Below, one piece after another: positions 1,465 to 64,000 of a stretch of DNA of 64,000 nucleotides. Source of the stretch: Planoprotostelium fungivorum (lineage: Eukaryota > Evosea > Variosea > Cavosteliida > Cavosteliaceae); the NCBI GenBank assembly GCA_003024175.1, contig MDYQ01000063.1, positions 1 through 64,000 of the forward strand, given 5' to 3'. The notes beneath the pieces were generated by a model. It worked only from the letters and a program-made list of their open reading frames with translations, was not told the origin of the DNA and ran no database searches. The position numbers and the translations under genes were made by a program. Numbering within the stretch: the first letter of the stretch is position 1; each line of letters starts with the position of its first letter.

Positions 1465-3259
1465 TCACTTGCCCACCTTGACATCCTTCAAGTTCAACTC
1501 TCTCGCTTGGTCTCTCAGCTGTCCGATGGGCTGGCCCATCTGAATCTTCTGTCCAGTTTGTACCATGAAATCGAATTCCGGGCTCTCGAAGATTAAGACG
1601 ATGGTGGATCCCATGTGAAAGAAGCCGAGGCAGTCACCCTTCTTCGCATTCACGTCGTCATAGTGACGATCGTAGTGCTTGTCTTTCAGTTTGGGGCGGA
1701 CGTTCGTTTTGACGTCCTGATGGAGTGAGACGATGATCGTGATGATGAGGGTGACAGTGGTGGATGGAACGTGTCGTGAGATGGAGGATGGTGATGATGA
1801 TGATCTCCACATCGTGATGTCCATGATGATGATGACGATGGTGAAAGACATAACACTCACGTCAAATTCCAATTTGATTGAACCGACGTTGGTCGCACCG
1901 ACTGGTGTGTAAGAGAAGAATCCGTGGGGCCACTCTCCGGTAAGAACAACCCTCTCGTTCAATGCAAAGAGTCCCTGCACCCTTGACACTACGGCGGGGG
2001 CGACGGGAAACAAATGTCCTGGCGTCATTTAACGTCCGTCTACAACGTTGTAGATGGAAAATAAATACCCGGGAAATGTCTACGGTCTGTGATCTTCCAC
2101 TCTGTCGGGGAGTGGAAACCATGGTAATCACCGGGGGCTAAGTATATGACGCAGTGGTACAGTTTCTTCTTCACTGAGTTGGGATCTACATCTAAAGCTC
2201 TCCTCTCTTTACGCAGCCTGTGTAAATCTTCTCCAAAGAAATCTGACAGTTCATAGGTGATTCCCTTGATCTACAACGCGTCAGAAACGAAGAGAGGACG
2301 GATGAGTGAAGGTGGAATAAAATGAAATAAATACCTGCTCTACCGTATCTTCTTGGATCTCGCCAAAGTGGAGGATCTTACCGTCGGCGGGAGAGACGAC
2401 GTCCGCGTTGTAGACGGGTCTGACCCCTGGTTTCAGCTTGCGGGTGAAAAATTGGCCGAATGTCTCGAACGATTCGATGGGCCTCTCTGACTCATCCATG
2501 TTGCATCCGTACATCTTGGCAAACGTTCCAAAAACGAATCCTATACAGATGAGTCCAGAACCGATGACATGGATCATCTCATACAGAAAAACATGTGAAC
2601 GTTTTGAATGGAAAAGATAGTGAGAGATGAGAATAAGACTGTGGATGGAGTCGACTGACCTCTGAGAGATTCTGGGACATAAATTCGGGTCATGTTTCCC
2701 CACCAACTGGAGATCAAACCCAAAGGCAATCTCTTGTACAGGGAGAGCTGCACGGTATCAGACATTTGAGACGATCTACAACGTGCCACTCACCGTGGAT
2801 TCGGAGTAGACTGCCACCTTCTTCTCTTGTTCTTGATGATACTCGTAATCGTTCAGAGCTTTCCTATTCCTCTCTTCTTTTTTCAATTTATCTTCCATGC
2901 TTGGAGTCAGCTTGGTCGTCACGTAAAAAACGACGAGGGCGACACCTATAGAAGTATATGAGAGAGTGAAGAGGGATGAGAAGGAGGCGATGGACGGAGA
3001 GAGATTCACCTATGACGAGGTAGTAGCGATACTTGTTCTTCTCAGAAGCACTGGCTCGAAAATCTCTCTGTTCTTGTCTCGCATCTGCCTTCTTCTGTCT
3101 GGCCTTGAATCGGTCGACTGGCACTTCAGAGTTGAAGCGATTGAACGTCAATCGTGGAGTGAAGATGTCATTGCATCGATTGAAAGGGGAACGTGACGTG
3201 AAACTCGTGGGCGTCGTTAACAGGGGAAGCTTCCCTCTCAATCGACTGATGTGAAGCAT
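1465..3259 (-). CDS. PSD1: Phosphatidylserine decarboxylase, mitochondrial type
   Basis: This pyruvoyl-dependent enzyme converts phosphatidylserine to phosphatidylethanolamine in the mitochondrial inner membrane. At least six exons are visible. A basic, Ser/Thr-rich N-terminus looks like a targeting peptide. A membrane segment follows ([12 protein letters not shown]). The catalytic region carries [25 protein letters not shown], then the substrate-site stretch [10 protein letters not shown] and [23 protein letters not shown]. The self-cleavage and pyruvoyl site is near the C-terminus as HMGST, a variant of the usual LGST; cleavage is between Gly and Ser in the family. An intron between FPG and HLFPVAP carries the palindrome at 2039-2054. 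The ATG at 3259 lies about 110 bp from the divergent deubiquitinase start, so the two probably share a promoter. Confidence 0.9.
2039..2054. repeat. Introner-type palindrome, PSD intron
   Basis: Perfect TCTACAACGTTGTAGA. On the gene's strand the intron reads GTATTTATTTTCCATC followed by the palindrome and a CCAG acceptor, so it also has the T-rich block seen in other copies. Confidence 0.88.
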
Positions 3260-3371
3260 GGTGATCCTGACTTCTCTTTTTCAGGTTGGGAGAATTTCCA
3301 AGTTGTAGACGAGTTTCATTACATTGAGAACGTTTCGCTGCAGTTCTCAGTTTGTGTCCTCTGTCGAGTTC

Positions 3372-6161
3372 ATGGTAACATCATCGACAGAAGAGAGAGC
3401 GACTGCTCCTACGCAGAAGAGCTTTCAGAGCGTGGCTGAGAAACTCAAGAACAGTCAAGGAAATGACATCTTGGATCGCAGAATAATCTTCAAGAGAGCA
3501 CAGAAGGAGGACCAGTCCACCTCGATTCTGAGAGCCAAGTACAAGCCGATCAATGCGAAGTCGACAGTGACAGAGGGAACGACCAATGGCAAGGGAAAGG
3601 CGTCCAATGGTGATGTCAAGCGTAAGGCCGAGGATGATTCTCATGGAGATGATGTGGTTGAGCCACAGTATTCTCTGTTTCCCCTTGAAGACATCAAGAA
3701 AATGATCCAATGGACAAAGGTGATGTGCGTTGCATCGAATATTCGTTGACAGGGATGCAGATCTTACGCGCTGGACCTGGTCTCGACAACATGGGGAACA
3801 CTTGCTTTCTCAATTCAGTCATCCAATGTCTGACATACACTCCCCCTCTGGCCAACTTTCTTATGTCCAGGAAACATTCTCAATCGTGCAAGATCAATGG
3901 TTTCTGCATGTTCTGTGTTCTAGAGAAGCATATCATTCGAGTCTTCCAGAACACGAAACAGAGTTCCATCACTCCTCAATCCATCGTCACCAACTTGAGA
4001 AGTGAGTCATTGTCACCTCTCATCATCCATCATTATCGTAAGATGATCCATGTCACCGTCCATCCTCTACATCGACTTGTCACCTTCAATTCATTCCTGT
4101 TCAGGCTTGAGCAAACAGTTCAAACTGGGCAGACAAGAGGATTCTCACGAATTTCTCCGTTACGTCCTCGAGGGCATGCAGAAGTCTTCCCTCCACGGTC
4201 TACAAGCCACCATCGGGTAATTTCCTCGAAATTTCTACGTCGACAGAGTCCGAACCTTTCTCAGAAAAGTCGATGGAAAGATCGCAGAAACGAGCATCGT
4301 CCACAGGATATTCGGTGGTTACCTGCAGAGTCAAGTGAAGTGCACCGTCTGTCAGTACAAGTCCAACACATTCGATCCATTTTTAGATCTCAGCTTGGAG
4401 ATCAAAAACTGCGTCTCTTTAGAAAAAGCTCTCCACGCTTTCACTAGCATCGAAGTGCTCAACGGAGCCAACAAGTACAAATGCTCCAAGTGGGTGTCCG
4501 TCTACAACGTTGTAGATTGACGTCGATAGGTGCATGAAATACGTAGACGCCCACAAGCGATTCACCATACGCAAAATCCCCCACGTTCTCACCATCCAGC
4601 TCAAGCGTTTCACCTTCCAGGGATCTTTTGGCGGGAAAATCCAGAAGCCAGTCAGCTACCCAGAGACCTTAGACATGAAGCCATATTTAGATCCGAGGTG
4701 TGTGGCCGAGTCAGGCTCTTGCCAGTACAAACTGTACGCTGTTTTGGTTCACAGTGGAGAATCCACGAGGTCCGGTCACTATTTCGCTTACGTGAAGAGT
4801 CCGGCGGGAATATGGAACCTCATGAACGATTCTCAGGTGAATTTCGATGGAATTTCATCCGTCTACAACGGTGTAGATTGACTCCGTCAGGTCCAGCAGA
4901 TCAACGCGTCGAGGGTTTTAGAACAGAAGGCTTACATCTTGTTCTACGTGAAAGACACTTCGAACGACAATGCAAAGAATGCACCTCTCGACAATCTCTC
5001 TACCATCAAGAAGAAGGGAAAGAACGACAATCTACAACGAGCCCAGATGGAGGAGAAGAAGAAGAGAGAAGAGAAGACCCAATTGGACAATGCAAGCGTT
5101 GTAGAGAAGGAAGTCAAATTTTCCAGCTTGGAAACACCCAGGCCAAAGGTGCAAGTGGAGGATGAAGAAGGCTTCCAACTCTTTTCAAAGAAGAAGAGCA
5201 AGGTGGAAAAGAGGTGAAATTCGATCTACAACTCACCACTTGTCGATCTACAACCCGCCATTGATACGGAGACAGTCATCTCACGACGAACGGAAGTGCA
5301 CCATCTACAACGAGCCAAAAGGATTCCGCTAATACGGAAAATAACGGAATATCGAACGACAACGGCAACGCGACAGAGAAGAAGAAGGAACCTACAACGA
5401 AAGAAGGAGAGGCAGAGAAGGGAAGAGAGAAGAAGAAGAGAGTCATCGAAGTTGTCTGGGGAGACGAAGAAGGAGAGAAGATGGAGAGGAATCACGAGAG
5501 GGAGAAGAAGTACCCAAAGTTGACGGGAGAGTTGAAGCAAGTCCTCACCGTGAAGAGGAACACTCTCTTCGGAACGGATGGTGATTTATTTCATTTTATT
5601 CTCCATCTACAAACGCAGCCACATCATTCGTCGTCTATTTTATTTCATTTTATTTACCATCTACAGTGGCGACGTGGGACGGTGAAATTTCGAGGGAAGA
5701 AGACCAGATCTTGTCTACAGAGAGGGAGACCGTCTACAACCGCAAGAGACACGCCGACGACATCGAATACGACAAGGGAAGGGTAAAGAAGGTCAAGACG
5801 AAGAAGGAGGTGAACAGTCGGTTTTAAGGTTTAATTCTGACGGGGATAGGAACTGGACTACAACATCTTCCAGAAGGAAGTGAACAAGAGGCTGACGGGG
5901 AAGAAGAGCATCTTTGTACCTCCACACAAGGCACTAAAGAAAGGTGAGTTGTAGATGGACAATAAAATAGAATAAAATATGAGGATGGAGGACTGACGAC
6001 GGTCAGGCAAGAGTTTTGGCGGGAAGAACGGACAAGGAAAGAGTTTCGGCGGGAAGAACGGACAAGGCAAGAATTTTGGCGGGAAGAACGGACACCCACA
6101 GAAGAAGCCTTTCAACAACAACCAACAGAAGTTCAAGAAGGGAAAGAAACAAGACAATTGA
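3372..6161 (+). CDS. Ubiquitin carboxyl-terminal hydrolase, USP36/USP42-like
   Basis: A cysteine-protease deubiquitinase of the UCH/USP family. The Cys box reads GLDNMGNTCFLNSVIQCL, followed by QEDSHEFLRYVLEGM. Next come a zinc-ribbon-like region (KCTVCQYKS with a later KYKCSKC) and the His box SGHYFAYVKSP. The order and spacing match USP36/42 and plant UBP16-type enzymes. The C-terminal tail is long and basic (Lys/Glu/Arg-rich). It ends in three near-perfect copies of GKSFGGKNGQ followed by a Lys-rich tail, suggesting nucleolar or nucleic-acid targeting as known for USP36. I chose ATG 3372 because upstream in-frame codons lack ATG. Introns at about 4495-4530, 4838-4890, 5581-5667 and 5943-6006 contain the CATCTACAAC element. 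Confidence 0.88.
4501..4516. repeat. Introner-type palindrome, deubiquitinase intron
   Basis: Perfect TCTACAACGTTGTAGA in a 38-nt-class intron (GTGGGTGTCCG..TCGATAG). A one-base variant is in the intron at 4862-4877 of the same gene. Confidence 0.85.
5581..5667 (+). repeat. Two T-rich element copies in one deubiquitinase intron
   Basis: The intron holds TTTATTTCATTTTATTCTCC followed by ATCTACAAAC, then a second TTTATTTCATTTTATTTACC followed by ATCTACAG that supplies the acceptor. The exon resumes VATWDGEISREEDQ. Confidence 0.85.
5943..6006 (-). repeat. Element in reverse orientation, deubiquitinase intron
   Basis: A plus-strand intron GTGAGTTGTAGATGGACAAT followed by AAAATAGAATAAAAT. This is the reverse complement of the T-rich/CATCTACAAC unit found at 5581 in the same gene. 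Confidence 0.82.
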
Positions 6162-10532: not shown

Positions 10533-12819
10533 TCATTTCAAGTCTTCAATCAGAGTGTTCCCGTTCTCCTCCGTGAAATATCGATAGATCTTATTCGACA
10601 GACTCGGACCGATCTTCCTCCCCCCCTTCTCCACATCCGCCAGAACCTCTCCACCCCCTCCATCCTGTTCTCATCAATTCTCCCCTCTTCTTCATCCATC
10701 TTCTCATCACCTCATACGCTCTCATCAGATGCCCCAGAGATGGATAAACTCTCGCGATGGCCTTTGCTGTCTGAACGGCCAAGCCTGGGATCTGCACCAA
10801 TTGGGCCACCCAGGCGGGCTCGTCTCTCAGTCGAATGACGGAACCCAAGTGAAAATTAGAGGAGGTCTCTTCTTCTGGTGGGAGAGAGAAGATCTTTGTC
10901 ATGTTGTAGATGTACTCGAAGGTGGTGTCCACGCCGCCGGTCGTGTGTACGTGGGCTTCGGCTTCGATTTGGAGCCAGATGAAGGACTGAGAGGATGAGA
11001 GAAGGAAGATGGAAGTGTCGTGGTGTCTCGCAGTGATGATGATGTTGATGATGTTGATGATGTTGATGATGTTGATGATGTTGATGATGATGATGATGAT
11101 GTTGATGTTGATGATGTTGATGATGTTGATGTTGATGATGTTGATGGTGATGATTGCGATGGGTGAGAGTATAGATGATGTAAACACCTTTTCGATCTCT
11201 GCTTTACCGATGATGACAACTCCTTCCTCTTCCTCCGTGATATTTCTCAGAGCCTTACTCCCTTGTCTCTGCTCGTGACTGTCTACATTCAGAAGATGTC
11301 GACATTTCATCTCCCACCTCAGAGCTCTGTTGATTCCTTCGATGAGATAGATGACCTTACGCCCCTCCTGGTTATTACGTACTTTACGTACGAACTCGTG
11401 AAATTTCGAGGTCTTGAGCAGGTTGACGTAAACATCTCCCGTTAGAAAGACAAGCACTTTGTCAATCATTCTGTGAGGAGTGAGATTTCACTGAAATGTC
11501 ATCGTCACCGGACGCTGTTTGGATCGTTCGGTGAAGCGACCTCCCACTCGATGCTATTGCATATCTCTCTCGTACTCGTCTCTGTGTTGCAGCCCACTTC
11601 AGTCGTTATTCTCTGTAATATCGTCTGTTCATTTCCATCAGTCTCGTTGTAGATGGAAAATGGGTGGATATTTCACGTGCATTCGTCATGTATCATGATG
11701 ATGAGATATCTCGTGTGATATCGTGGAGAGAGACTCACGGCACCACTCTTCGTCTGAGATATTCTTGAATCGATCTTCATCTTCACAAGGGCCATCAGTT
11801 CCTCTGGTGTTCGTTTCCTGTTGTTCTCTTTCTCTCTCTCCTTCTCTTCGTTCTTTCTCTGTTTCTCTCTCTCCCTCTCTTCACTCTTCTTCTTCTTCTC
11901 TTCTTCTCTCCTCTTCTTTTCCTCCTCCTTTTTCTTCTTTTCTTTATCCTTCTCTTCTTCTTTCTTTCTCTTTTCTTCAAACTTCCTCTTTACTTCTCTC
12001 TCTACCTCTCTCTCTACCTCACTACGCTCCTGCCCGAAATATTGAGCCGTTTTACAACGTTGTAGATTCACCTTTTCCTCCTGGCGGGCTAATTTTCGTC
12101 TATCAGGTTCTTCCTCAGAGGGTCTCTTCTTCCTTCTCTTCTCACTCTCTTGTGTGTCACGTGATTGTGAATTTTCTTTTCTGCTCTTCTTGTCTTTTTT
12201 CGGTGGTTCGATGTCTTCTTCTTCGATCTTCTTTTTTCTCCCATTTGTAGCCGCGGTCACACCATCTGTTTTCGATTCAGATACGTCATTTTGAGATGCA
12301 TGATGTGAGGAGAAGATGAGATAAAGAGCGCACCGAAATCGACACATGAATGGTCGTCGTCTGAGTGATCGATGGGTGACACGGAGAGGAGTTGGGAGAA
12401 TGATCGAAGTTCTTCGAATGACGTATCTTCGTCTTTCTTAGGGGGTGAGGGTTCATCATCACTGCTGATGAGAGTGACACAGACGGGTGGAGGTTTGATC
12501 GTGACAGGGACAACAGTAGATGTCGATGTTTTGGGTGGGATGATAACCTTTTCTTCTTCTTGCTTCTTCGGTACTTCGTGCTCTTTTGTATCGCGTATAG
12601 GGAAGTGTATTTCACTAGGTTGAGAAGATGCTCGTTTCTGATATGATTTCAATGATGAACAGGGTTGAGACTGACCTTTGGAGACGGTAATTTCGTCTTC
12701 TTTGATGGTTCTGATGTCTTCTTATCAATGGCTCTCAACCATGCAGGTTTACTTAAATCAAAATCGTCTTCGTCTTCGCCTTCTTCATCACTACTGATTA
12801 GATTCAATACCCCAGACAT
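10533..12819 (-). CDS. EME1: EME1-like subunit of the MUS81 structure-specific endonuclease
   Basis: EME1 pairs with MUS81 to cleave branched recombination intermediates. ATG 12819 gives MSGVLNLISSDEEGEDEDDF, an acidic start. Ser/Pro- and Lys/Glu-rich regions follow, including a very charged coiled-coil-like block (11790-12040). The ERCC4-like fold shows VIYLIEGINRALR, then FIWLQIEAEAHVHTTGGV and FLGSVIRLRDEPAWVAQLVQIPGLAVQTAKAIARVYPS. The C-terminal helix-hairpin-helix has IGPSLSNKIYRYFTEENG. This is the EME1 order; the family's EME1 side lacks nuclease activity. An intron holds a 9-bp microsatellite (11035-11156), another the palindrome variant at 12051. The final exon is separated from the previous one by an intron near 10600. 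E2F-like sequences lie just upstream. Confidence 0.8.
11035..11156. repeat. GATGATGTT microsatellite in EME1 intron
   Basis: An imperfect run of GATGATGTT/GATGTT units lies in an EME1 intron. Read through, it would code for an Asn/Ile run, but donor and acceptor sites flank it and EME1 homology resumes on both sides. Confidence 0.9.
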
Positions 12820-13892: not shown

Positions 13893-16800
13893 ATGGTGAA
13901 GCATTCTAATTGATAATACCTTGAAATCTGAAGTTAACGATCAAACAGTTCAGCTTTCGCACCATCAATTCGAACACGAAGGTGTCCAATGCGACGACAG
14001 ATCTTCGTCTCCAGAAAGAGGCGAAGGTGATATTTGAATGTATCCATTAATTAATGTGACACAAATGCTAGGAAGCGGCCAATACGGCTGCTTATGAGAA
14101 GGGTCTCGATTTTCAGAGAAAGAAGAAATGGACCGAAGCATTGGATGCTTTCCAGAAACTCCTGTCTGAACCTCTTCTCAAAGATATCGACGAGGTGATT
14201 CACAACAATTTCATCATTTAACATCGAATTTTATTGACGATACGGCACAGGATGAGCCCTTATCCTTGGGAGACCCCTCAGTCATGCTCAAGTATCTTAC
14301 ACTGAAGAACATTGGAACCATCCAAGAGCATAGAAACAACACAGAAGAGGCCTTGGAATATTACCTCAATGCTGCTCGAATCGATGACTCCGATCCATCT
14401 CTCTGGTGAGATCATCAATCATCTCACCCATTTTCATGCATCGTCGTTATGTCCCATCTTTAACGTTAGAATACACACATGAACAGTAGATCAACAACCG
14501 TCTATCATCATTTCTCAGAAAGGAAAATGAAACTTGTGATAGGTACCACATCGGTCTGCAAGCGAGAGAGAGTGGAAATTATTCTCTGGCCAGACAATCC
14601 CTAGAGAGAACTCTCATGATACAACCACGCCATTGGCTAGCATTCGATCAACTCATCGAAGTACTGTACATCATCGAAGACTATGTACAGGTGAGTAAAA
14701 CTCCACGGAAATATCATTGATCGTTGTAGATGCAACTCTTGTGTCAGATGGCCTTACAATTGGATCCCAATTATTCGCGCGGGAAAAAAATCATCTCCGC
14801 CCTGGAAGATCAGACCTTGGATATCACACAAGACGATGTTTTGGCGGGGAAGAGAAGTTTCGATGAGATTTCAGACACGGGCATCAGCAAGAAGGCCATC
14901 GAATCGAGACAGAAGAGGAGGAAGACATTGGAACAGGTAACACATGATAACACGATATCGAGTGAGATAACTGACATCAATGCAGGTGGAAACGGAAACA
15001 TCGATTCGTACGGAGCACAGGAATTTGGGCGATTTGACTTGGGCTCAGTTGGCAGCTCTACTGTGCAAGGTGAATATTCCGTGAAAATCGTGTGAAATTT
15101 CTTGGAACTGAGAGGAAGAGGCTTATTCTGATCGGACTTCCACGAATGACAGTCGGTTACCCCTCCATGCACCGTTGGAGATCGAAATCAAGCATAGGAG
15201 GTGACTGATGTGGCACGTTGTAGATCGACTCAAATATTGTAGACGCCTCACGGGGGATACCATCGACTTGGTCAGCCCGGTGAGTGGACGAAATTTCATA
15301 GAAAATTCTGACGGACGACACAGGCCGAGACGCCGAAAGGTCCAACTACAACGAGCCAGACCACAACTCCAATGGAAATCGTCGAGCCAACTTCTACCTT
15401 AGAAGGAACAGAAGAAGCAAAGAAGAAAGAAGAAGGGAAAGAAGATTCTGCCGCACCTCCCAAGGCCAGAAAAGGTACCACCCCGTTTCAATGCGACTGT
15501 CTCATATACAACGACAGGTGCCAAGGGTAAGCAGCCCGTCAACAAGAGAACCTCCGGAAGACTCCGCGTAACTTCCGATCCTTCCTCGGAATCTCCGGTG
15601 GAAGCCTTTCTGAATCACATGATCCACTTCACTTTCATCGAAGACGAAACAGAGGCCAACAAATCGGAAGACGAAGAGAGTGAAGAGACAAAGGGACCGC
15701 ACGACGTCGACCGACCCACCATACCTCCCCTGTTGGAACACAAGCAGGTGAAATCTCGTGGAGAATCCGTGGGATGATGGAGAACAGGTGGGAAAGTTCA
15801 TGACGGAGATGTCGACGCTGAGAGTGGGTGTCGTGTGGTGGACCGAACGTTTCCTCGAACAATTCTTCTCCCAAAACAGTGGAAAATATCGCTGGCCCCT
15901 CCACTTCATCAAGGTAAACCATCATTCTCCCACATCTCACATGTGTACAGAAAATCATTGAACTATCGAACCACTTGTCACACAGCGTGAAGCACAAGAA
16001 GGCACCCAGGTACTATTTAGACGTGGCCGAGATGCTGGGTGATACGAATCGATGGGAGCTATCACGCTCGCACGTCGATCAACTGATGGAAGCCGTCGCG
16101 AGCGGTCCTCTAGACATCGAGGGAGAGATTGAAGTCGATCAGCCCAACTCGAAGGACAGAGAGTGAGTCGTTCATCTACAACGAGCCGTGAGGTTGACGG
16201 AGGCAGGGGGGTGAGGAGATTCTACGCTCGATTGTATTGGATGAAAGCGAAGGCCGAGAAGGCTAGAAATGAACCAGAAGAAGCGAGGTACTATCTCAAT
16301 CAGTGCCGGATGATATTGACCGGAGAGGCGAAATTACCCGAAACCGAGGTGAAAATTCGTGTGAAGTTCGAAATATCGTTCGGAAAATTTCGGGAAATTT
16401 CTTACGTGAGGTAGGGGGGGAACGATGCCGCGGTTGTTTGGACATTCGTTCGGCCCGGAGAAAAAAGCCCGACGAAGCCATCTACAACGAGCCTGCCCGA
16501 AATGTCCCAGAATCTCTCCATCACCCTCTGTCACGTAGACAAGCCTGAATTGAGGACGATATCTGTACCCTCTATCGATTCTCTCCTTCGACCTCTCGAA
16601 CAGAGTGAAGAGAGAGAAGAAGTGAAGAAGTTGATTGCTGAGGCCAAGTGGAACAAGATCATCTTTCTATTGGGAGATCAATCCAAGGTGGGTGTTTTAT
16701 TTCATTTTATTGTTTTGGGGAGCTGATGCGTCTCGTTGTAGACGATCAGGATCAAATTGTGTTCTCCGAACCGTCAAGTTCAGACGGATGCATTACAGAC

Positions 16801-19800
16801 CGTCGTCGCTCTACAACGAGCCTATTCCGCTCTGAATAACCCCATCGCCGCCTTCGAGGTGAAACATCCGATACAATTCTCCGATACAATTACCCGATAT
16901 CCTCTCGCTCATTGTTGTAGATGGCGGATCTCATCCTCTATGGCCTGTGGAACGTCTTATCCTCTGAACCCAGATTGAACATCGATGGGGAGGGACAGAG
17001 ACCCACCGCTTCTCTCATCTTGGATCAACTGCACATCATACGCCTCACCGTCGAAGAGAAAAACGAGTGAAATTTCATTCGATTTTCTCTCGAATATCTC
17101 ACCCCATCAGGGACGGACTCTTCACTCACACTCTGAAATCGAACACTTGCACTTCCATCTTGAAGACGTTGACGCAGTGGATCAATCGATCTCTCACGGC
17201 CAACAGTAAGAAGGCGGCTGATCCCTCCACTTCAAAGTACTGCATGCTCTTCTACCTTCTACTCAACCGTCCGGAAGTGTGCGAGATCGATGGATTCAAG
17301 GTGAATTTCGAGTTACATACGGAGGTAATGGAGGGAGCAGAGACAAGCGAAGAGAGAGGAGAGGAATTACAATTATCTCTTCACGACCCACAAGTATCTG
17401 GGAGCGGTACAATTGTGTCCGAAATCACAAGATTATCTCAGATTCATCGTGCAAGAGGTGATGGCGAGTTGTAGATGGGTCTGATTGACCCGTTGTAGAT
17501 GGAGAGGATCCGTAATTACGCAGAGGAGAACGAGTCCGACGAAAACGAGGTGACCGTCTCCCGATGTCTCGTTGTAGATTGACGTTCCTCAGGAAGAGAA
17601 TGGAAACGACATGGAAGAATTGAACGCTGCCGGTTTGAATCGAGAATTGTGTCAGTGTTACTACTGTCTCTTTCGCATTCGAGACACAACGGTGAGTGGG
17701 AGAGGGCAGAGACATTGGATGGTAACGCTGGAAACAGGCGAACGAGGCACATTGTCCTAAAGAGTCCCTGGCCAACATACAAGCCAAGGATGCCACTGGA
17801 AAGACGAAAGATCCGACATTAGAGGTGATGACGATCATGATCGTGATGATCATCATGATGAAGAGGGGATGTTGATGATGATCAGATGTTCAAATCGAAT
17901 CCATTGATGTTATCTTACCTCTTAACTTTTGTGACGAAACACGTCGATCGACTCTACAAAAAAGTCGTCGAAAAGGTGAACTACATCTTTACCTCTCACG
18001 TCTGAAACGTCTCGTTGTAGATCTCACCCATCTTCGACCAACCACCCGATCACCTCCTGTACGCACGGAGTGCAGTTCTCCAGTACATCGAGACCGGAAT
18101 TTTCCCAGAAAACATCTCGAAACTTCCTCCACCGGCCGACGCCGACACCTCCTTTGATTTTGTCTATCCGAAGATCTACAACCGGTGGGAATATTTTGAA
18201 ATGACGTCACGCCACGTCATACACGTTTCGTATTGATGAAAATGGTAGGAACAGCTTGGCCTCGAAGAGCAGTGACACACCGACAGATCTGTTTAAGACG
18301 TCACAGAATCTGCTGACCGGTCTATTTATGGAACCGAATCGAAGCGAGACGTGGTATCAGCTGGTGAAATTTCACGGAGATATCGTGGAAATTTCTGAGA
18401 AAGAGTAGGGATTGACGTACAGATACATTTGGGACGCTCTGTTAGATTCGGACACGCCAGAAAATCCAGTGGGAAGCATACTCGAGATCGAAAATAACAA
18501 CGGTATTTATTCTCATTGATTCTCCATCTACAACACTGACGTCGACAGCCTTACCCAATTCGAAGGTCACTCCCGCCCAGGTGAAATTTTCAAAATTCAA
18601 AAAGTGAACGAAGACAGGTGAAGGAGATGACCGACGCGTTCTTCAAGAAGGCAAATCTCTCATTCAACCGTGCCGTCGAGTTGGACGACACGAAGACGGA
18701 AGCCAGTTTAGAGTCATCCATGCTGGCTTACTCTCACCTACGATTCCTCAGAGCTGATTTCAATCAACAGCAACTCGAAAGAAAGAACAACGGGGCGGTG
18801 AGATGTCTCTTTTCATCTTCCCACTCAAATCATGACGTCGTATTGTGACTCGAGGGTGAATCGTCTCCTGACTCGTTGTAGACGAGAGACGAATTACACA
18901 GGGCGGCGATAGAATGGTTGAAGGATTATCGAGTCAAGGTGAGATCGTTCGTCTATAACGTTGTAAATCGAGTCAGGTTATGGACGTCGTGACGAATTTC
19001 ATGAAATTAGAGAAGAAATCGAAACCGAGCGATCCTTCTTCGTGGATCTGCCCGACTTTTCGAGGAAAATGTCTGGAAAAGTTGAACCGCATAGACAAGG
19101 GTGCCGATCTCGTCAACAACAATCTGAGGGTGAGATCATTCTACAACGAGCCGAATTCGAAAGAAATAAAATTATTTCATATCTAACTGGGACGCAGGCG
19201 TTACGATTCTACCAGCGAGCCAGCCAGAAAGAAGACGAACAAGCGGGAGGGAAAACAAACGAAGCCGAGCCACACTACCGCCTCCACTCGAAACGTCTCG
19301 AACTACTCCAAGTGTGTCTCGTTGTAGATCCATTCTCCTCACACGTTCAGGATTCAGCCTACGACGTAGAACTATTGAGCAGAGAAGAAGACCTCTTCAA
19401 TAAGAACAAAGATTGGAATGGTATGTCGGGCGATCAGAAGAGGAGGGAGCTCATCACAGATTGCATCTTGTCTCTCGAGCAGTGTCAGAGGCTGCAGAGA
19501 GACTACGCACACAAACATTCGTACAAGCTTTGTCTATACTACAAGAAGAAGGGAGATGTGATGAAGGCAGTGGATGAGATGGAAAAATTATTTCACAAGA
19601 AGACGGGGTCGGGATTATCGAAGGTGGCTCGTTGTAGATGGAAGATTCGTAGAAGATTCACGGAATCAGGTCGAAGGAGAGTCCACTCTGGATCGTGGCG
19701 GGAAATTGCGATATTACGTGGAGAGGTGAATTTCTCGGAATTTTCGTCGCATTCGCGGCTCATTCGCATCTTTCAGATACCTCAAGCTCTTCGTCAAGCT

Positions 19801-20509
19801 ACTCGAAGAGACGGAAAATTCGCAGAGACTTCACGAGATCGCAGTCAAGGTCAAACCTGATCTAAAGAGGTACCTCTCGCTCTACGAACCCTTCTTACGT
19901 ACGTTACGCAAGGAGATCAACACCCTGATGTGAGACTACCACCCTTATCCTACTGAAATTTCCAGGAAATTCGAGGCGGGAGAGAGGAATGTCGACAAGA
20001 TGTCTTCGTTGTTGAGATTGGCTCACTTGGCTTATAATGAAGTCAGGCCCACGGGAAAATCGAAAATCGGGAGCGTTGTAGATACGCCGGACAATCGAGA
20101 GGCCACGAAGAATATGCTCTGCGTGAGTGGACGTTCGTCTACAACGTTGTAGATCGTGTAATTCGAATTAGGATGCATATCGAATGGAGAAACCAGATGC
20201 GAAGGGAGAGGATCTATTGATGGAGGCCATCACTTATGCTGAGGCCAAGTTCAAGAGACCACCGGGGAAGCGAGCCAAGGTGGGATCATCATCGTCTTCA
20301 TCATGATGATCTATTCTTCTATGTCCTCTTTGTCTTCTCCATCACGTTTCGAAATCTTTTCGATATGATGATGCGCGAATGAGACGGATGATGTGATTGT
20401 GATGAAGAAGTTGAAGAGAGATCAGGTATCAGAGACACCTGTTGCACCTACAACGATCCCTCCTGCTGCCCCGGCGGCTCCTGCAGCTGTGGATAACAAG
20501 TCAGAATAA
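13893..20509 (+). CDS. CABIN1: CABIN1/Hir3-like TPR subunit of the HIRA histone chaperone complex
   Basis: CABIN1 (yeast Hir3) is a TPR scaffold of the HIRA complex, which deposits histone H3.3-H4 independently of replication together with ASF1. The N-terminus matches the family: RTINSNTKV, AAYEKGLDFQRKKKWTEALD, DPSVMLKYLTLKNIG, EEALEYYLNAARIDDSDPSL and WYHIGLQARESGNYSLARQS, then HWLAFDQLIEVLYIIEDY. About twenty short introns split a long helical-repeat protein that ends with a Pro/Ala-rich tail and TAA at 20507. The ATG at 13893 is followed at once by a GTGAAG donor, so the first exon would carry only the start codon; this is inferred from the frame that starts KVSNATTDLRLQK. Many introns hold the CATCTACAAC element, for example at 20138. 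Confidence 0.82.
20138..20153. repeat. Introner-type palindrome in CABIN1 intron
   Basis: Perfect TCTACAACGTTGTAGA inside a short intron that starts GTGAGTGGACG and ends AATTAG. Confidence 0.85.
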
Positions 20510-22029: not shown

Positions 22030-25000
22030 TTACATTCTCTGTCCAATTCTCTTGATGTTGGACATTCTAATTTCTTTCTTTCGCAACATGGGCTGGTAGA
22101 TATCACCTCCTTCTTCGTCAATTTCTTCCTCTTCTTTGAAGGAAGAGTGCTGGGAGACGTCATCGTCCATGAACTGACAGTCCATGATGGCGATGATCTC
22201 CTTGAAAGTTGGTCTCTTCTCTGGATCCTGATTCACAAGATATCAGAATACATTGGCGATATGGTGATCCATCGATCACGATGATGAGATAATGACGTGA
22301 TGAGATGATGTCGATCGTGATGATGAGGTGATGATTGACTCACTGTGACCCAGCATGCATTCATCAACTGTGCACTCTCAGATCTTACATTCTCAGTGGG
22401 AAGACGTAGATCCATGGTAGTGACGCCCACGGCAACTTCCAATAGACTCTTCTCCACGAAGGGCTCCTCGATATTCATGATCTCCCAGATGGTGACTCTG
22501 CATTCATCAGTCTCACCCAACGAAGAGATACGAATCACCCGAAGCTCCAAACTACATTTGAATCAGCGATTGATGAGGGAAAAGTCTACGATCGTGATGG
22601 TGATGGATCGAGAGGATGAGATGAGATGAAATGGACACTCACTGTCTGATTTCGTGGAGTAGATCTGATAGCGGATCGATTCGGGAGCCATCCTGAAATG
22701 TGTCATCGATGTGATAGATGATGATGTGTCATCGATGTGATAGGTGATGATGTGTCACCATTTGATGGGTCCTACGTTACTTGTCGTCTTGGACACCTGA
22801 TCAACGTCATCATCATCCATCATCATCCATCATCACGATGACACACCTGTCCCACTTCTTGTTGCTGTCGACTCATACCAAAGTCACTGATCTTCGGCTC
22901 CAAACTCATATTCAACAATACATTCCTACATCTTCATCAATCTACACTCCCCCGAGAGAAATTCGATTGTAGATGGATGATCTATAGAGATCTCCACGAT
23001 CTCGTCACCTGGCGGCCAGATCTCTGTGAACGATGTTCTCTGAATGGAGATGGAACATTCCGTGAGCGATGCCACGGATCATACGTAACTGTACGTTCCA
23101 ATCGACCGTGGAGCGGTGAGTACGTAACCAGCTGTCGAGGGAGCCTCCTTCACAGAATTCTGTTACCGTGTGAAAGAATGTCTCTTTTGAAGTCGAGTTG
23201 TAGATGAAGAATAGATGATGATGAATGGGTCACCTGTGACTAGACTGAAAGGTTGAGGGGGGATGCATGTACCTGTTTTCGTCATAAAACTCTCAGAAAA
23301 ATCGAATTTTGCATCTACAAACCTAAAAAGACCACGACGTTCTGCTTCACGTCAATTTTGAAATCTCGCAGAAAACTCACCGGGTGGGATCTCAAATTCT
23401 GCAACAAGTTCATCTCTTCCACAAATTCCTTCAATTGCTCCGGACTGACTCCCTATGACGTCATCAATCCCACGGATTCTCCACGAAATTCACCTGTGAC
23501 AACAGTTGTTTCACCGCCACGTTGGCCTCCCTCCATCGTGCGCGATATACCACACCGAATGCTCCCTGACCGATCCATTTCTTATTCTCGATCTCGTTGT
23601 AATCGATCTGTGGGTAACGTCAGATTACAACGAGACGTACGTAGAACACGTACGACGGTGCTCTTGATGTTAGAGAGGTTGAGGTTCTTGAGATTCTGTT
23701 CGAATTCTCTCTGGTCTCTCTTCTTCGCCCATTTTCGATAGATGATTACACCTGATGTGGTATCAGCATCACGATTGAATCGATTCATTTTCAGTCACAA
23801 ATAAATTACGAAAGATAAATTTGTTTTCATAGAGAGACATAAAACATGAAATATGAAAAAGATTTATATTGAAATGGAAAGAGAATCAATTATAGATGTC
23901 GATCAGATGAGAGGACACACCAATGATGCTCAGAACGAGAACTGCCGCGAGCGATCCCACCACCGCACCTACTCTACGTCACGTGACGTCCCAAATATTT
24001 GGGACTCACCTGCAATGACTGCAGGGTTCATCTTGTCGGCTATGTAGATGATGTTGCTCTCTCTGATGCACTGCGACGAATTTCCGCTGGTATTCGCCAC
24101 GAAGGTCTGAGGGCAAGATATCTTATCCGTCGACAGTCCGTCGACATTTCCGATGGGTGCGTACACCTGGTGATGACGTCATCGTGATGTCATATTACGT
24201 CGTATGACATCATACCTTCTGATCACTGGAGAGAGAGGAGGAAGAGAAGGTGACGGTGGGGATGGTGGTGTCGGTGGTTTCCATGGAAACGGCGTTACCC
24301 TTCGGAGCGGTATTGGAGTCGAAGGAAGTGGAGGAGACGATGCTGTCACCTTTAGGTTCAGTCAGTTGGGAGGTCATTCGACATGTGATCGTGATGATCA
24401 TCACGATGATGATGAAGATCACGATGGTGATGATCAACATGATGTTCAACATGATGACGATGATGGACATCACGCGCAGAGTGATGATGAGATGAGCTCA
24501 TCACCTCCGATGGAGATCGCACCTCCCGAGGTGGCGGCCGAATTCTTCTTGAATTTCGAATCGGTGATGAGCAACAATGATCCATCCTGGGCACTCGATG
24601 ACGTCACGGCTCCACCCACGTCCGCCGAGTTTTCATCGAATTCTACGTTCTTCAACACCGTGGCCGGAAGCGTAACGTCCCTCGACAGCTTGTTTACCTG
24701 TTGACGTAAGACGAGATTTCGGTGAAATTTCGCCTCACTCTCTTAGGCACGATGAGGTATAAGGCTCCACCGGAGGTCGCATTGTTGCCGGAAAAATTCG
24801 AATCGATTATTCCAACGACACCTTGTACGTACACACCGCCTCCATTTTTCGCAGAATTTTTGCGGAAAGTGTTATCGTACAGCTGCGTACGGCGGCCCGA
24901 CACGATGTTGATGGCACCACCTGAAATGTCAGTGAAAATTCGAATTACGTAGCTCACCGTCACCGTTGGTCGCAATGTTTTGAGACCACACAGTCTGGTT

Positions 25001-38116: not shown

Positions 38117-38934
38117 ATGACGTCTCCGAATAAGAGGAAAGAGGTAGATCTGATGAAGCTGTGAGTATCGATCTTGTGTGATACCATAGACAAGATGAGC
38201 CATATAGAGAACCACTTTTGTATTCAGGATCAGAGGTACTGATGGGTTTAATAGCATGATGAGCGATTACGAAGTTCATATGCCAGGAGATTGCGTCACT
38301 GAATTCTCGGTGAAGTTCAAAGGCCCCAAAGACAGTGAGATTGCTCCTCTCTCCTCCTCGCTCAATTCAGTCAGGTCCATATGAAAATGGAACGTGGAGG
38401 GTTCGTGTGGAGCTACCACCTGCATATCCATACAAATCACCTTCTATCGGGTTCTCCAATCGTATCTTCCATCCAAACGTAGACTTCTCGTGAGGATCAT
38501 TCCATCACATTCACTCGATTGACAAGACAAACAGTTCTGGATCCGTCTGTTTAGACGTCATCAATCAAACTTGGAGCCCCATGTTTGGTGACTTCCATCA
38601 ACAGAATCAATCGATTGATTCCATCCAGATCTCATCAACATCTTTGAAAGTTTTCTCCCTCAACTGCTTCTATACCCAAATCCAACGGATCCTCTCAACG
38701 GTGAAGCCGCTGCACTTCTTCTCAAAGAGCCAGAAAAGTACAAGGAGAGGGTCAAAGGTGAGACGTCACCATGATCTGTTCGTCTCACGCCAACCATTTA
38801 TAGAATGTGTGAATAAGTATGCATCATCGAACGAACCAGAAGACCACGTATCGGAGGGAGAGGGCAGTGATGAGAGTGAGCTGAGTGCCTACTCTGAGGG
38901 AGAAGATGATGAGATGGATGACTTTGAAGACTGA
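38117..38934 (+). CDS. UBE2H: Ubiquitin-conjugating enzyme E2 H-like
   Basis: Class III-like E2 that partners with the GID/CTLH E3 complex in yeast (Ubc8) and animals. ATG 38117 gives [15 protein letters not shown]. The UBC fold follows in several exons: [20 protein letters not shown], then [20 protein letters not shown]. The catalytic-Cys segment is [17 protein letters not shown], then [38 protein letters not shown] and [11 protein letters not shown]. The acidic Ser/Glu/Asp tail ([13 protein letters not shown]) is also typical of UBE2H. The catalytic Cys is preserved. Confidence 0.9.
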
Positions 38935-39860: not shown

Positions 39861-39942
39861 GACACCTTGGCCGAGTTGGTTATGGCGGTAGACTAGAAAT
39901 CTACTTCCTTCGGGAGCACAGGTTCGAGTCCTGTAGGTGTCG
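39861..39942 (+). tRNA. tRNA-Ser (AGA), copy 2
   Basis: 82 nt, identical in sequence to copies 1 and 3, with a TTTTT Pol III terminator at 39944-39948. Same class II structure and AGA anticodon. Confidence 0.95.
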
Positions 39943-50533: not shown

Positions 50534-50615
50534 CGACACCTACAGGACTCGAACCTGTGCTCCCGAAGGAAGTAGATTTCTAGTCTACCGCCATAACCAA
50601 CTCGGCCAAGGTGTC
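50534..50615 (-). tRNA. tRNA-Ser (AGA), copy 3
   Basis: 82 nt, identical to the copies at 28970 and 39861, with a minus-strand T-run immediately 3' (plus-strand AAAAA at 50528-50532). It sits in the 5' flank of the F-box/LRR gene. Confidence 0.95.
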
Positions 50616-51911: not shown

Positions 51912-53676
51912 ATGCGATTCCTCTTGCCATGCATTGCGATCTGTCTGTCCTTCTATCTGACGTATAAGGGAGACGCGGGTCTCAGATACTTTCGTAATCT
52001 CTTTTCCACTCGTGAAGCTCATCACATCGAAGGTGATCGATCATCTGAGCTCCCCCTAATTATTTTCAGTTCAGAGGGAATTATCTGATATACCTTCCAA
52101 ATATCTGCCGTGTGATGGAAATCATCTATACACCGAATCGAGCTGTCGTCAGATGTGAGGAGATAGACACACAGATCGACAGACTGAACCTCTTTTAGGT
52201 GTCTCTCTTCTGCTTTGAAAACACTTCAGGCAGAGAAACCATTGGATTGGCTGGTCGACGAGATATCATGTCACTCTTGTCCCCATCACAATCGGTTGAG
52301 AGATCCTCTATTCAGTTTCGTGAAGAGCCAGCATGAGATGTGGATGTCAGTCCACAGCGAAGAGGTAAATATACATAATGTCTATTCAGAACACCGCCAC
52401 TCACCTTATCCATCAGCGATCAGAGGACAAAACTGCTGTGCAAGTGGGTGAGTTGTGTCATCCCCGGGGCCGATCTCAATGTTGATGTGATCATTTAGAC
52501 AAAAAGTCGATCAATTGGGGAAAGATATTAGACGCAGGGACTGGTGTCTACTCTTTCAAATGGTTGAGGTGACCCGATCTCTTTGGTTCATGACGATCTG
52601 TGGTGGCTGATGCAGATTCACAGGTGGTTCTCATCCGAGATGGTAGTTGGAATAACGGCCAGCTCAGCCATGAGAGAGTCTATCGAACAGAATGCGTTGG
52701 AATACATCAGGTGATCTACATCATCATTGCATCATGGACCATCACTGATCTGCCTTCTGTAGACCGCAAGACAAACTCGTAGTCGGCAATTGGATGAACG
52801 GAAAGAAGATGGAAGAGTTGAATGGCATCCAATTCGATTTCGTCCTCGCTGATTACCTCATCGGTGCAATGGAAGCTTTCTCTCCATTCGGTCAAGACGA
52901 TTTCTTTGAAAAGGTGACGATCTACAACGTTGTAGACGGAGAAAATCCGATGATTTCTACAGGTCAAGCCGTACGTCAAGTCGAGGTTGTACGTTGTGGG
53001 TATGGAGCCATATGGTGTCCCAAATGATTGGGCCGCGGGAGAGAGTGTATATCACGCGAGAGAAGGTAGAGATGGAGAGACGATGGCCATGGAGATCGCG
53101 ATGAACATCATGCGATTGAGAGATGTCATCATCATGCTGGTCGGGGAGAGATACTACAGGTGACTCCAAAGACAATCTCAATTCGGCGCATCTTCACCCA
53201 AGATCTTCTCGCCCATCGATCGCGATCGTCATCCATCATCCATCGTCATCACTCCATCGTCATCTGACGCACTTTAAGAGAGTATCCATCCGAATGGATC
53301 GTCAAGAGTCTCCAACGACACGGCTACATCGTCGATGAAGTGAGGCTCTTCCCCATCAACTGGGGCAAGAAAGCCCTATTGGGTCAGCTCGAACTGTCTC
53401 TCAACAAACTGCGGACGTATGCAAAGTCAAAGTTCATGGTCACCGAAGGCGCCACGATGAGTTTGATCGAGAGCATGGAGAGGCAGATAGAAGAGATGAG
53501 GATACTTTTAGAGGTGGTTTCTGCTTCATCGGTTGTAGCTGAAGCGTGGGCAGGCAAGTGCGGTGGTGGAGAACCACGGAGTCTGTTTCGGCATGGACTG
53601 GGTGAGGGATGTGGAATGATGTGGAATGACATCATGAAAGGTGGTGGTAGCACATCTGAACGGGACGAAGAGTTAG
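51912..53676 (+). CDS. Putative class I SAM-dependent methyltransferase with N-terminal membrane anchor
   Basis: ATG 51912 gives a hydrophobic start (MRFLLPCIAICLSFYLTYKG), a signal anchor or signal peptide. After a linker with Cys/His (SCHSCPHHNRLRD) comes SAM-binding motif I, WGKILDAGTGVYSFKWL, then VVGITASSAMRESIEQNALE, KLVVGNWMNGKKMEEL and FDFVLADYLIGAMEAFSPFG. Later segments include YVVGMEPYGVPNDWAAGESV, LRDVIIMLVGERYYREYPSE, LQRHGYIVDEVRLFPINWGK and VVENHGVCFGMDW. Several introns; one holds the palindrome at 52921. The first two introns were not fixed with certainty. Substrate unknown. Confidence 0.6.
52921..52936. repeat. Introner-type palindrome, methyltransferase intron
   Basis: Perfect TCTACAACGTTGTAGA 7 nt after the donor GTGACGA; the intron ends TTTCTACAG. 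Confidence 0.85.
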
Positions 53677-59312: not shown

Positions 59313-59315
59313 ACT

Positions 59316-61160: not shown

Positions 61161-61229
61161 TGCGCTCACAATGTCGTTGTGTGACGATGATAAAAAACGA
61201 GTCTATGTCTAAAACACAATCTATTGCTT

Positions 61230-61690: not shown

Positions 61691-61815
61691 TATCTGCGGA
61701 CGTGAACAAAGTACTCCGATCAAATGAACGTGGCGTATCGTATCAAAGTGAATCGTCTCGTTGTACATTCGATTGCATTTATCTTCGTGGTGTTACGTCG
61801 CGTTCAGCTCCTTCC

Positions 61816-62449: not shown

Positions 62450-62664
62450 CTCGAGTGTTGATGATGTTGGTGTGTCTGTCTCTTCCTCTTCTTCCAAATG
62501 CGAATTCGCCGAACCAATTTTCACTGAACGGTCGAAAATGGAAGACACTGGACTATTACGAAATTCGCCATCATTCTATCTCATCGTCTAAAGATGACCT
62601 CTCAGACGTGTCATCCCATCAACACACGACGGCACATCCACCTTCATCGCGATGAGAGAAACAC

Positions 62665-64000
62665 TTATGTCTTTATCGGGCTGAACGTCTTCACTTTGAC
62701 GTCTAATTCTCTCTTGGCTTTTCGTATGGCCTTGAGCCAGTCTTTCTTCTCCTTGTCCCCTCCAGTGCTGATGGTCCAGTTCTTCATGCAGCGGGCGTAG
62801 TGCCCCCGTGAATTCACTTTCTTCTCTTCCAAGACGGGGAGACGCATGGCCACCATCTGGAAGCAATTTGTGATGGACAGGACGGGCTGCAGGCTCTTTT
62901 GGTCTGGTCTTGGAGTTGGGATGATGATGAAAAGATGATGGATGTCGTGATGTCGATGTGGGATGATGTTCTTCTCGATGATGTTGATGGTGTCCACACT
63001 GATGTTCGGGGATGATGATGTTCATGATGTTCATGTTCGTGATGTGGTTTCTGATGATAACGATGATCGGAATCGAATCCATGAAGAGAAGAAGGAATGG
63101 CAGGTTGTAGAATCTCACCGTAAACCGTTTCCTCCAGATCTGGATTATCGAACACAAACAGATTCGACAGATCGAAAATGAATGCCGCCTTCTTCCTGGG
63201 TGTCTGATCGATCATCACCAACAGATCGTTGAACAAGTACGCGAAGAATTCTACGAAATTTCAGTACGAAGCATCACTGGATGTACGTAGAGTACGTATG
63301 ATATCTCTCGTGATATCTCTTCTTCACCTGTCGAGCCCTCCTCGGTGTGTCTTACAATTTTTCCTTCGCGAATAAATGTTCGATGTGCCTGAACGAAATT
63401 GCTCTCCGGAACCTGTCACGTCGTCAGCCTCGTTGTAGATGAATAACTGTCTCATTGTAGATGGATAAACTTTTCGTTGTAGATGGGCAAATATTTTCTA
63501 GATAAACGTGGATTTCTCGTTGTATATCGATAAATAACCATCTTCGATATATGCGTAGATGTCTCGTTGTAGATGGATCATTCTTCTCACCTGACCGGTT
63601 GGTATGGGAGACACTGGAAAATTCGCCAGATTTTCCACGAAATCCGGCAGTAATTGTGTGGCCGTTGTAGATACCTGAAGCTCAGGCAGCATCGACGCGA
63701 TCTCGATCACCTGTCGACGTCAGATTTTCGCGGAAAATTCCATCTACAATACCTTCTGTCTCGCTTCGGCCTCGATTTTCGATTGGTTGATGGAGCCGAC
63801 CAAGCCGATGAACTCTTGACAAAAGTTCATGAGAGGGTTCGTGTTGCTGTCCTGTCTGGCTCTCTGCGTTGCTGTTGTTGACTATAAAATGTCAGAAAAA
63901 TTCATTTCTATTTCGGTCTTTTTGTAGAAGACATGTAAATCTTCATTTTTTTGAAGAGAGGATGATTATGGAATGATGAACGTGAAGGATATGAGATGGA
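62665..64000 (-). CDS. RhoGEF (Dbl) with PH domain, 3' part
   Basis: The gene runs off the end of the window, so only its C-terminal part is seen. The end of the DH domain is NPLMNFCQEFIGLVGSINQS then EAEARQKVIEIASML. The PH domain follows with AHRTFIREGKIVRH, EFFAYLFNDLLVMIDQTPRK, AAFIFDLSNLFVFDNPDLEE, QPVLSITNCFQMVAMRLP and EKKDWLKAIRKAKREL, stopping at 62665. DH-PH proteins activate Rho-family GTPases. Several introns, rich in GTTGTAGATG half-elements (for example at about 63430-63580), are very short exon-spacers. Confidence 0.7.
63429..63580. repeat. Cluster of GTTGTAGATGG half-elements
   Basis: At least four copies of (T)CGTTGTAGATGGA/TA or close variants lie within about 150 bp, in one RhoGEF intron. 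The spacing (about 25-60 bp) suggests tandem or nested insertion of the element. Confidence 0.8.

What the first reader, a model, noticed from the sequence alone, without database searches (positions are those of the whole stretch)
2039..63580. A mobile introner-like family built on CATCTACAACGTTGTAGATG
Eight perfect copies of TCTACAACGTTGTAGA (2039, 4501, 20138, 30543, 34217, 34673, 41175, 52921), five one- or two-base variants (4862, 12051, 18953, 32357, 33928) and dozens of half copies occur in the window. The full copies I could place all fall inside GT..AG introns of unrelated genes: PSD, USP, CABIN1, the PX/PH kinase, Ku70 and the methyltransferase. Chance expectation for a 16-mer in 64 kb is far below one. 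The presence in non-homologous introns fits introners, which are units that spread and create introns (known in Micromonas, some fungi and other protists).
Basis: partly seen in the sequence, partly recalled or inferred. Interest (0 to 1): 0.88.

Follow-up and report, generated by a model that had tools for sequence, protein, structure and literature searches.

The report
Mirror-image DNA sites in tiny introns
In the amoeba Protostelium aurantium, many unrelated genes carry the same short mirror-image DNA word inside their smallest introns, and its pattern of change looks more like a protein-docking site under selection than like a jumping intron.

Summary
In detail: 8 exact and 5 near copies in the window, 0.18 expected, and 681 exact copies in the 36.9-Mb assembly of Protostelium aurantium. 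All 13 window copies lie in predicted 38-59-nt GT-AG introns. In a 264-kb sample, 38 of 38 core copies stayed in predicted introns when the motif was masked before gene prediction; none lay in 146 kb of exons or 18 kb of convergent/divergent intergenic DNA.

The introner reading is only partly supported. Similarity stops at a 24-bp palindrome, short of the splice sites: two inverted half-sites at one fixed spacing. Arm positions hardly vary, two central positions vary freely, and copies with two weak halves are too rare. Lone half-sites occur in both orientations. This fits a selected dimeric DNA-binding site better than an RNA hairpin or decaying transposon. Full sites are missing from longer introns (0 of 134), which is unexplained. 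Short introns without the motif are also enriched in other perfect palindromes.

The parts
2019..2068 (-). 50-nt intron in phosphatidylserine decarboxylase gene with exact palindrome (2039-2054)
4490..4529 (+). 40-nt intron in USP gene with exact palindrome (4501-4516)
4837..4890 (+). 54-nt intron in USP gene with one-mismatch palindrome (4862-4877; change at central position 10)
12030..12071 (-). 42-nt intron with one-mismatch copy (12051-12066)
18939..18976 (+).
20123..20171 (+). 49-nt intron with exact palindrome (20138-20153)
30536..30575 (+). 40-nt intron in PX/PH/protein kinase gene with exact palindrome (30543-30558); spliced out in PROFUN_08087
32330..32388 (+). 59-nt intron in the same kinase gene with one-mismatch copy (32357-32372; central position 7); spliced out in PROFUN_08087
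33917..33958 (+). 42-nt intron inside the kinase domain, one-mismatch copy (33928-33943; central position 7); spliced out in PROFUN_08087
34209..34252 (+). 44-nt intron, kinase gene, exact palindrome (34217-34232) inside a perfect 24-bp palindrome TCCA..TGGA; spliced out in PROFUN_08087
34666..34712 (+). 47-nt intron, kinase gene, exact palindrome (34673-34688); spliced out in PROFUN_08087
41156..41197 (-). 42-nt intron in Ku70 gene with exact palindrome (41175-41190)
52914..52962 (+).
16163..16206 (+). example of a single half-site (TCTACAACGAGCC, sense) in a 44-nt intron
19312..19350 (+). example of a single half-site in the antisense orientation (GTTGTAGA) in a 39-nt intron
23969..24009 (-). 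41-nt intron without the motif but with another perfect zero-spacer palindrome, GTCCCAAAT|ATTTGGGAC

Best explanation
The element is a dyad-symmetric DNA binding site, consensus TCCRTCTACAnCGnTGTAGAYGGA: two inverted half-sites (TCCRTCTACAACG) at one fixed spacing. It is most likely bound as DNA by a homodimer or paired factor and kept in very short introns (34-60 nt in 37 of 38 sample copies) of a subset of genes by ongoing selection on binding strength. Single half-sites (TCCATCTACAACNNGYCA, either orientation) are weaker or heteromeric versions. The introns score as ordinary spliceosomal introns; the 16-bp core starts 4-15 nt after the 5' splice site and ends 12-28 nt before the 3' end. SHOWN: sequence, counts, predicted intron location, fixed spacing, constraint pattern, half-site compensation, orientation independence, normal splice scores. 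INFERRED: that a protein binds it, that it acts on DNA, and that it acts in gene expression (intragenic regulation, or slowing polymerase to help splicing of tiny introns). The protein and the effect are unknown.
For: Arms at spacing 4: 1800 copies (control 7); spacings 5-20 together: 228 (control 161); inside-out order: 1. In the 264-kb sample spacing 4 has 40 copies and every other spacing 0-30 has at most 2. Constraint: about 28% of half-sites differ from A at the free position (768 + 2x40 of 2978), about 6% change per central CG position (96+119 copies) and about 1.5% per arm position (the other 319 of 534 one-mismatch copies; control 14). Compensation: both halves non-A at position 7 in 40 copies, 121 expected (A/A 681, 762 expected); both G at the flanking position in 54, 85 expected. 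Lone half-sites keep A at position 7 (55 of 56); lone extended half-sites in predicted introns are 29 sense and 38 antisense. Conserved footprint has edges at 24 bp. Splice scores of motif introns are normal. Uneven between genes: 30 of 67 genes with >=6 short introns have none, 18.7 expected; adjacent short introns both carry it 19 times in 389 pairs, 9.4 expected.
Against: A usual transcription-factor site should also occur in promoters and long introns. Of 600 confident introns, 24 of 466 under 60 nt but 0 of 134 of 60-150 nt hold a full site. In the 18 genes with >=2 motif short introns (a choice that itself favours short introns), full sites are in 25 of 313 introns <=52 nt, 4 of 108 of 53-80 nt, 0 of 55 longer ones (7.3 kb), and 0 in 7.3 kb of 250-bp flanks; half-sites are in 70, 19 and 3 of those introns and 4 times in the flanks. 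No binding protein is identified, no expression data were available, and gene models are from my own gene finder. Some motif-free genes look conserved, such as one that reads like a histidyl-tRNA synthetase (my reading), so no clear target class emerged.
Confidence: 0.52

Rival explanations
1. Introner-like family: each motif intron was created by insertion of a mobile unit of about 40 nt whose inverted-repeat core is the palindrome (TIR-TIR), recognised by a transposase.
For: Intron-only location of full sites in the sample (38 of 38); no length increase over other introns; present in many unrelated genes and clustered within genes; absent from introns of 60-150 nt (0 of 134); slight, non-significant leaning to AG|G sites (23 of 81 v 77 of 392, p=0.10).
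Against: Similarity ends at 24 bp, short of the splice sites, whereas the published criterion asks that it begin near both intron ends (PMC9860276, passages). Flanks are unrelated while the core is nearly invariant, so even decay after insertion does not fit. Half-site compensation and lone half-sites in both orientations are not expected of inert copies. Direct-repeat excess at the borders is weak: sum>=4 in 6 of 23 full, 6 of 29 sense-half and 4 of 21 antisense-half introns against 13% of 526 others.
Confidence: 0.2
2. Short introns are in general built round perfect zero-spacer palindromes (a DNA-level mechanism of intron birth or maintenance); this motif is only the largest family.
For: In 346 introns <=50 nt lacking the motif, perfect palindromes with arm>=7 number 10 against 0.8 and arm>=8 number 6 against 0.24. 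For arm>=5 the excess is essentially at spacer 0 (43 v 13.9; spacer 1: 20 v 14.6; spacers 2-16 together 118 v 107.5). Sequences are diverse.
Against: Other DNA shows smaller excesses on small counts: arm>=7 is 1 v 0.8 in introns of 51-80 nt, 3 v 1.1 in 81-150 nt, 3 v 1.4 in exon pieces, 4 v 1.0 in intergenic pieces. Palindromes with one mismatched pair in the inner positions are little or not in excess, so no clear trail of decaying palindromes is seen. Several recur as words known (recalled) as dimer sites, TGACGTCA and CACGTG, which fits binding sites as well.
Confidence: 0.16
3. RNA hairpin: the palindrome folds in the pre-mRNA and helps splicing of tiny introns.
For: 6-10 bp stem with an NCGN loop; motif introns fold better than shuffles (mean z -0.86, n=72), and short introns without the motif do so slightly (z -0.22, n=346; exons +0.07, n=400).
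Against: At the outer pair, G-C is rare (54 of 1357) and A.C mismatches are as common as G.U wobbles (10 v 12 of 38), the reverse of what a stem needs. Of 8 near copies (1-2 mismatches) in the sample only one (L023, near 8948) has a compensated arm pair. Inverted repeats with spacers 3-8 in other short introns are at expectation (52 v 53 for arm>=5, summed). Lone half-sites occur in both orientations and lack the second arm. Splice signals are not weaker.
Confidence: 0.07
4. Chance, low-complexity sequence or assembly artefact.
For: None found.
Against: 0.18 expected in the window; reversed pattern 0 genome-wide; listed places spread over many contigs; five introns confirmed by the public protein.
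Confidence: 0.01

Closest known systems
Introners (survey PMC9860276; passages seen)
   Same: Repeated sequence in introns of many unrelated genes; bias to genes; inverted-repeat symmetry in part of the families
   Different: There similarity must begin near both intron ends and families were found by all-against-all BLAST at 1e-5; here only a 16-24-bp core is shared, which such a search would probably miss (my inference)
Internally symmetrical stwintrons and cropped introns of Hypoxylaceae (PMC8469720; passages seen)
   Same: Introns with inverted symmetry about a short central palindrome, no flanking tandem duplications
   Different: There 45-55-nt inverted repeats span the intron and copies are alike over their length; here introns are about 42 nt and symmetry beyond the core does not exceed cross-intron controls
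Amoebophrya introner elements (PMC7789003; passages seen)
   Same: Short inverted-repeat (8-20 nt) motifs in introns, splice sites at variable distance from the motif, no general transposase
   Different: There mostly non-canonical introns, repeats pair the two intron ends and direct repeats overlap the borders; here GT-AG introns with a normal branch-point score and an internal core
NRG element of insect OXPHOS genes (PMC2241641; passages seen)
   Same: A palindromic DNA element found mostly inside introns of a gene set, sometimes several copies per gene
   Different: [quoted passage not shown] here 24 bp, in introns along the gene, about 1,500 copies, no gene class found
bZIP/bHLH/Myb-type dimer sites (recalled, not tested)
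   Same: Dyad half-sites at fixed spacing; CAACG resembles a Myb core (recalled)
   Different: No protein identified; full sites absent from the gene flanks examined

Membership tests
Introner | Intron-intron similarity reaching near both splice sites | tested here: not met
   Information content falls to low values outside the 24-bp core
Introner | Occurs in introns of many non-homologous genes | tested here: met
   38 of 38 sample copies in predicted introns; four gene families confirmed by Pfam
Introner | Target-site duplications or terminal inverted repeats of the intron | tested here: inconclusive
   Weak border-repeat excess; inverted repeats are internal, not terminal
Introner | Presence/absence of the whole intron among related strains | not testable with these tools
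   No related genome held
Dimeric DNA-binding site | Two inverted half-sites at fixed spacing | tested here: met
   Spacing 4: 1800 (control 7); spacings 5-20 together: 228 (control 161)
Dimeric DNA-binding site | Position-specific constraint with compensation between halves | tested here: met
Dimeric DNA-binding site | Independence of transcription orientation | tested here: met
   Extended half-only sites: 29 sense and 38 antisense in predicted introns, of 83 in all (15 in predicted exons, 1 intergenic)
Dimeric DNA-binding site | Also present in promoters or long introns | tested here: not met
   Full sites: 0 of 134 confident introns of 60-150 nt, 0 in 18 kb convergent/divergent DNA, 0 in 7.3 kb of flanks of 18 motif-rich genes. 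Half 8-mers do occur there: 11 in the 18 kb, 4 in the flanks
Dimeric DNA-binding site | A protein that binds it | not testable with these tools
   Needs experiment
RNA hairpin element | Compensatory base-pair changes; spacer tolerance | tested here: not met
   one compensated near copy of 8
Known structured RNA (Rfam) | Match to a curated family at gathering score | tested here: not met
   Only three tRNA matches in the window, none at motif introns

The most novel reading that the evidence does not exclude
The shortest introns of this amoeba are a class of protein-docking DNA: introns of about 40 nt are kept, or even born, because they carry perfect dyad sites, with TCTACAnCGnTGTAGA as the largest of many families. 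Gene bodies would thus be read at DNA level through their tiniest introns, while promoters and long introns are not used this way.
Probability: 0.27. Interest if true: 0.9.

Novelty: new variant of a known kind. Interest (0 to 1): 0.7.

Why it matters
Tiny introns are usually taken to be little more than splice signals. A seemingly selected 24-bp DNA site, repeated about 1,500 times and in the sample found only in introns, nearly all of them of about 40 nt, gives such introns a candidate content and a reason to persist. It also warns that repeated motifs in introns need not be introners: a strict core with unrelated flanks and half-site compensation separates the two readings. The claim is directly testable in a culturable amoeba (culturability recalled).

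Tried and rejected
Paralogous or allelic copies of a motif region for presence/absence: a 6.5-kb search found only itself and eight short weak matches, so no pair to compare. Weak splice signals helped by the motif: no significant difference in 5', branch or 3' scores; an earlier cruder branch count (0.39 v 0.68) did not hold up with a fitted motif. Symmetry linking 5' splice site and branch point: not above cross-intron control. Intron density as predictor of motif share: no (rho -0.15, p 0.19, 77 genes). Protosplice differences: not significant (p 0.05-0.13). Decaying palindromes: inner mismatches not clearly enriched. Sequence words in papers (572 papers hold at least one of four words; none of the 20 listed held the 14-mer, and by title they looked unrelated). 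The listings showed no paper on this motif; I saw listings and, for five papers, passages only. The paper on this genome was not found (a DOI given from memory was not held).

Caveats: the gene finder is home-made and self-trained on 264 kb. For the masked control motif words were removed from the noncoding training set only, and training began from the earlier labels. 12 of the 20 extra regions were placed on contigs known to carry the motif; in the 8 placed blind (L017-L024) there were 7 core copies, 4 in L020 and 3 in L024. Near-copies are rarer in the sample (2 one-mismatch to 38 perfect) than genome-wide (534 to 1489), and the position of the genome-wide mismatches is known only for the centre. 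Half 8-mers are not confined to introns: 90 in gaps <=60 nt (4.81 per kb), 37 in exons (0.25 per kb), 11 in convergent/divergent DNA (about 0.6 per kb). Spacings 7 and 17 were read off the 50 listed of 228 places (16 and 11). Pfam was run on 5 proteins or parts only, one of which (a 79-aa piece) had no match. Predicted gene chains may fuse neighbours: the kinase chain includes the next gene.
Full report
WHAT AND WHERE. The window is part of a 36.86-Mb, 471-contig assembly. A protein encoded at 35992-37866 matches PROFUN_08088 of Planoprotostelium fungivorum at 100% identity over 99% of its length. That genome is taken to be Protostelium aurantium (PMC10639083, passages), a variosean amoeba. 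The 16-mer TCTACAACGTTGTAGA is present as described: 8 exact and 5 near copies against 0.18 expected, and 681 exact copies genome-wide with 0 for the reversed control. With the two central variable positions opened (TCTACANCGNTGTAGA) there are 1489, control 1. The window is several times richer than the genome average.

INTRONS. I wrote a self-trained gene finder and ran it on the window plus twenty 10-kb regions (264 kb). It gave 600 confident introns of at most 150 nt, median 44 nt, with a clear CTGAY branch point. Of 38 core copies, 26 lie in same-strand gaps of at most 60 nt, which are 7% of the sequence. The other 12 lie in longer same-strand gaps (4 of 61-150, 5 of 151-400, 3 over 400 nt). 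None lies in 145,895 bp of strong exons or in 18,141 bp of convergent and divergent intergenic DNA. To reduce circularity I removed motif words from the noncoding training set and replaced the motif by filler before prediction: 38 of 38 positions were still called intron (introns are 32.5% of the sequence), 37 of them in introns of 34-60 nt and one of 80 nt. For the kinase gene the public protein PROFUN_08087 skips all five motif introns exactly. The motif introns have normal 5', branch and 3' scores.

NOT A COPIED INTRON. The conserved footprint is TCCRTCTACAnCGnTGTAGAYGGA; beyond 4 nt outside the 16-mer the signal drops to background or to what looks like splice-site signal (38 copies). Lone half-sites have the form TCCATCTACAACNNGYCA with no conserved flanks (178 copies). 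Motif introns are as short as others (median 43 v 44 nt; 22 of 23 <=50 nt). Had 16 nt been added to ordinary introns, 2.7% would be that short. So the motif and the short intron go together, but only the core is shared.

CONSTRAINT. Arms TCTACA/TGTAGA at spacing 4 occur 1800 times (control 7); spacings 5 to 20 together 228 times (control 161); the inside-out order once. At the free position about 28% of half-sites differ from A, at each central CG position about 6%, at each arm position about 1.5% (minus; an upper bound, since some are chance). Copies with both halves non-A number 40 where independence predicts 121; A/A is 681 against 762. At the flanking position A/A is 731, A/G 572 and G/G 54, where 762, 510 and 85 are expected. 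At least one strong half is thus favoured. Lone halves are strict (A at position 7 in 55 of 56). Of 83 lone extended halves, 29 are sense and 38 antisense in predicted introns, 15 in predicted exons and 1 intergenic. Among the longer spacings 16 of the 50 listed are spacing 7 and 11 are spacing 17; most of the latter read as two half-elements head to head.

DNA, NOT RNA. In a stem, G-C at the outer pair should be at least as good as A.C. It is rare genome-wide (54 of 1357) and absent among 38 sample copies, while A.C (10) is about as common as G.U (12). Lone halves lack the second arm and ignore strand. Inverted repeats with hairpin-sized spacers (3-8) in other short introns are at expectation (52 v 53, summed). 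On the other side: motif introns fold better than shuffles (z -0.86), as any palindrome would, other short introns do so slightly (z -0.22), and one of eight near copies has a compensated arm pair.

DISTRIBUTION. Genes differ: 30 of 67 genes with at least six short introns have none (18.7 expected) and neighbouring introns tend to share the motif (19 v 9.4 of 389 pairs). In the window the kinase chain (fused with the next gene) has 12 of 33 short introns with a half or full site, the Ku70 chain 6 of 14 and the PSD chain 3 of 6, while several other chains have none. By length, full sites are in 24 of 466 confident introns under 60 nt and 0 of 134 of 60-150 nt; any motif word is in 80 and 16 of them. 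In 18 motif-rich genes, chosen for motif in short introns, full sites occur in 25 of 313 introns <=52 nt, 4 of 108 of 53-80 nt, 0 of 55 longer ones, and in none of the 250-bp flanks; four half-sites lie in the flanks. This is the strongest point against an ordinary transcription-factor site.

WIDER PATTERN. Short introns lacking this motif also hold too many perfect palindromes: arm>=7, 10 v 0.8; arm>=8, 6 v 0.24 in 346 introns <=50 nt. Introns of 51-80 nt show none in excess; introns of 81-150 nt, exon and intergenic pieces show smaller excesses on small counts (3 v 1.1, 3 v 1.4 and 4 v 1.0 at arm>=7). The excess is essentially at spacer 0 (43 v 13.9 for arm>=5; spacer 1, 20 v 14.6; spacers 2-16, 118 v 107.5). 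The sequences are diverse; some recur, such as TGACGTCA and CACGTG, which are rarer in introns over 52 nt, while GAAATTTC and TTCGAA are as frequent in introns of 53-80 nt. Palindromes with one inner mismatched pair are little or not enriched, so these too look like kept sites rather than decaying relics.

JUDGEMENT. The best account is a selected dyad DNA site in tiny introns (0.52). An introner origin is possible (0.20) if the sites are also needed after insertion. The link to intron length is unexplained and is the most interesting part.

Noticed in passing
window 28970-29051 (-), 39861-39942 (+), 50534-50615 (-): Three tRNA genes identical over 82 nt, and all followed by ATTTTTG, but in otherwise unrelated flanks: dispersed identical tRNA copies.
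   Followed up: partly
window 23969-24009 and 38588-38628; L007 4296-4344: Long perfect palindromes in motif-free short introns (GTCCCAAATATTTGGGAC, GAATCAATCGATTGATTC, GTGTCGACACGTGTCGACAC), part of a general excess of zero-spacer palindromes in introns <=50 nt.
   Followed up: yes
L018 3223-3333: Interstitial CCCTAAA telomere-type array inside a predicted gene that looks retroelement-like (my reading).
   Followed up: no
window 1717-1860 (-) and other longer introns: Same-strand gaps of 61-150 nt are rich in CATCATCATC/GATGATGATG and AATAAAAT/ATTTTATT words (1.9 and 1.29 per kb, against 0.59 and 0.37 in gaps <=60 nt), a different composition from the shortest introns.
   Followed up: partly
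L005 1-4414 (-): A gene that reads like telomerase reverse transcriptase (my reading of the predicted protein) has 6 of 27 short introns with the motif, 3 of them full palindromes.
   Followed up: no
window, several introns; e.g. 40917-40960 (-): TTCCCGCC/GGCGGGAA (an E2F-like word, recalled) is over-represented in introns against Markov expectation (10 v 0.1) but also occurs 32 times in the exon set.
   Followed up: no
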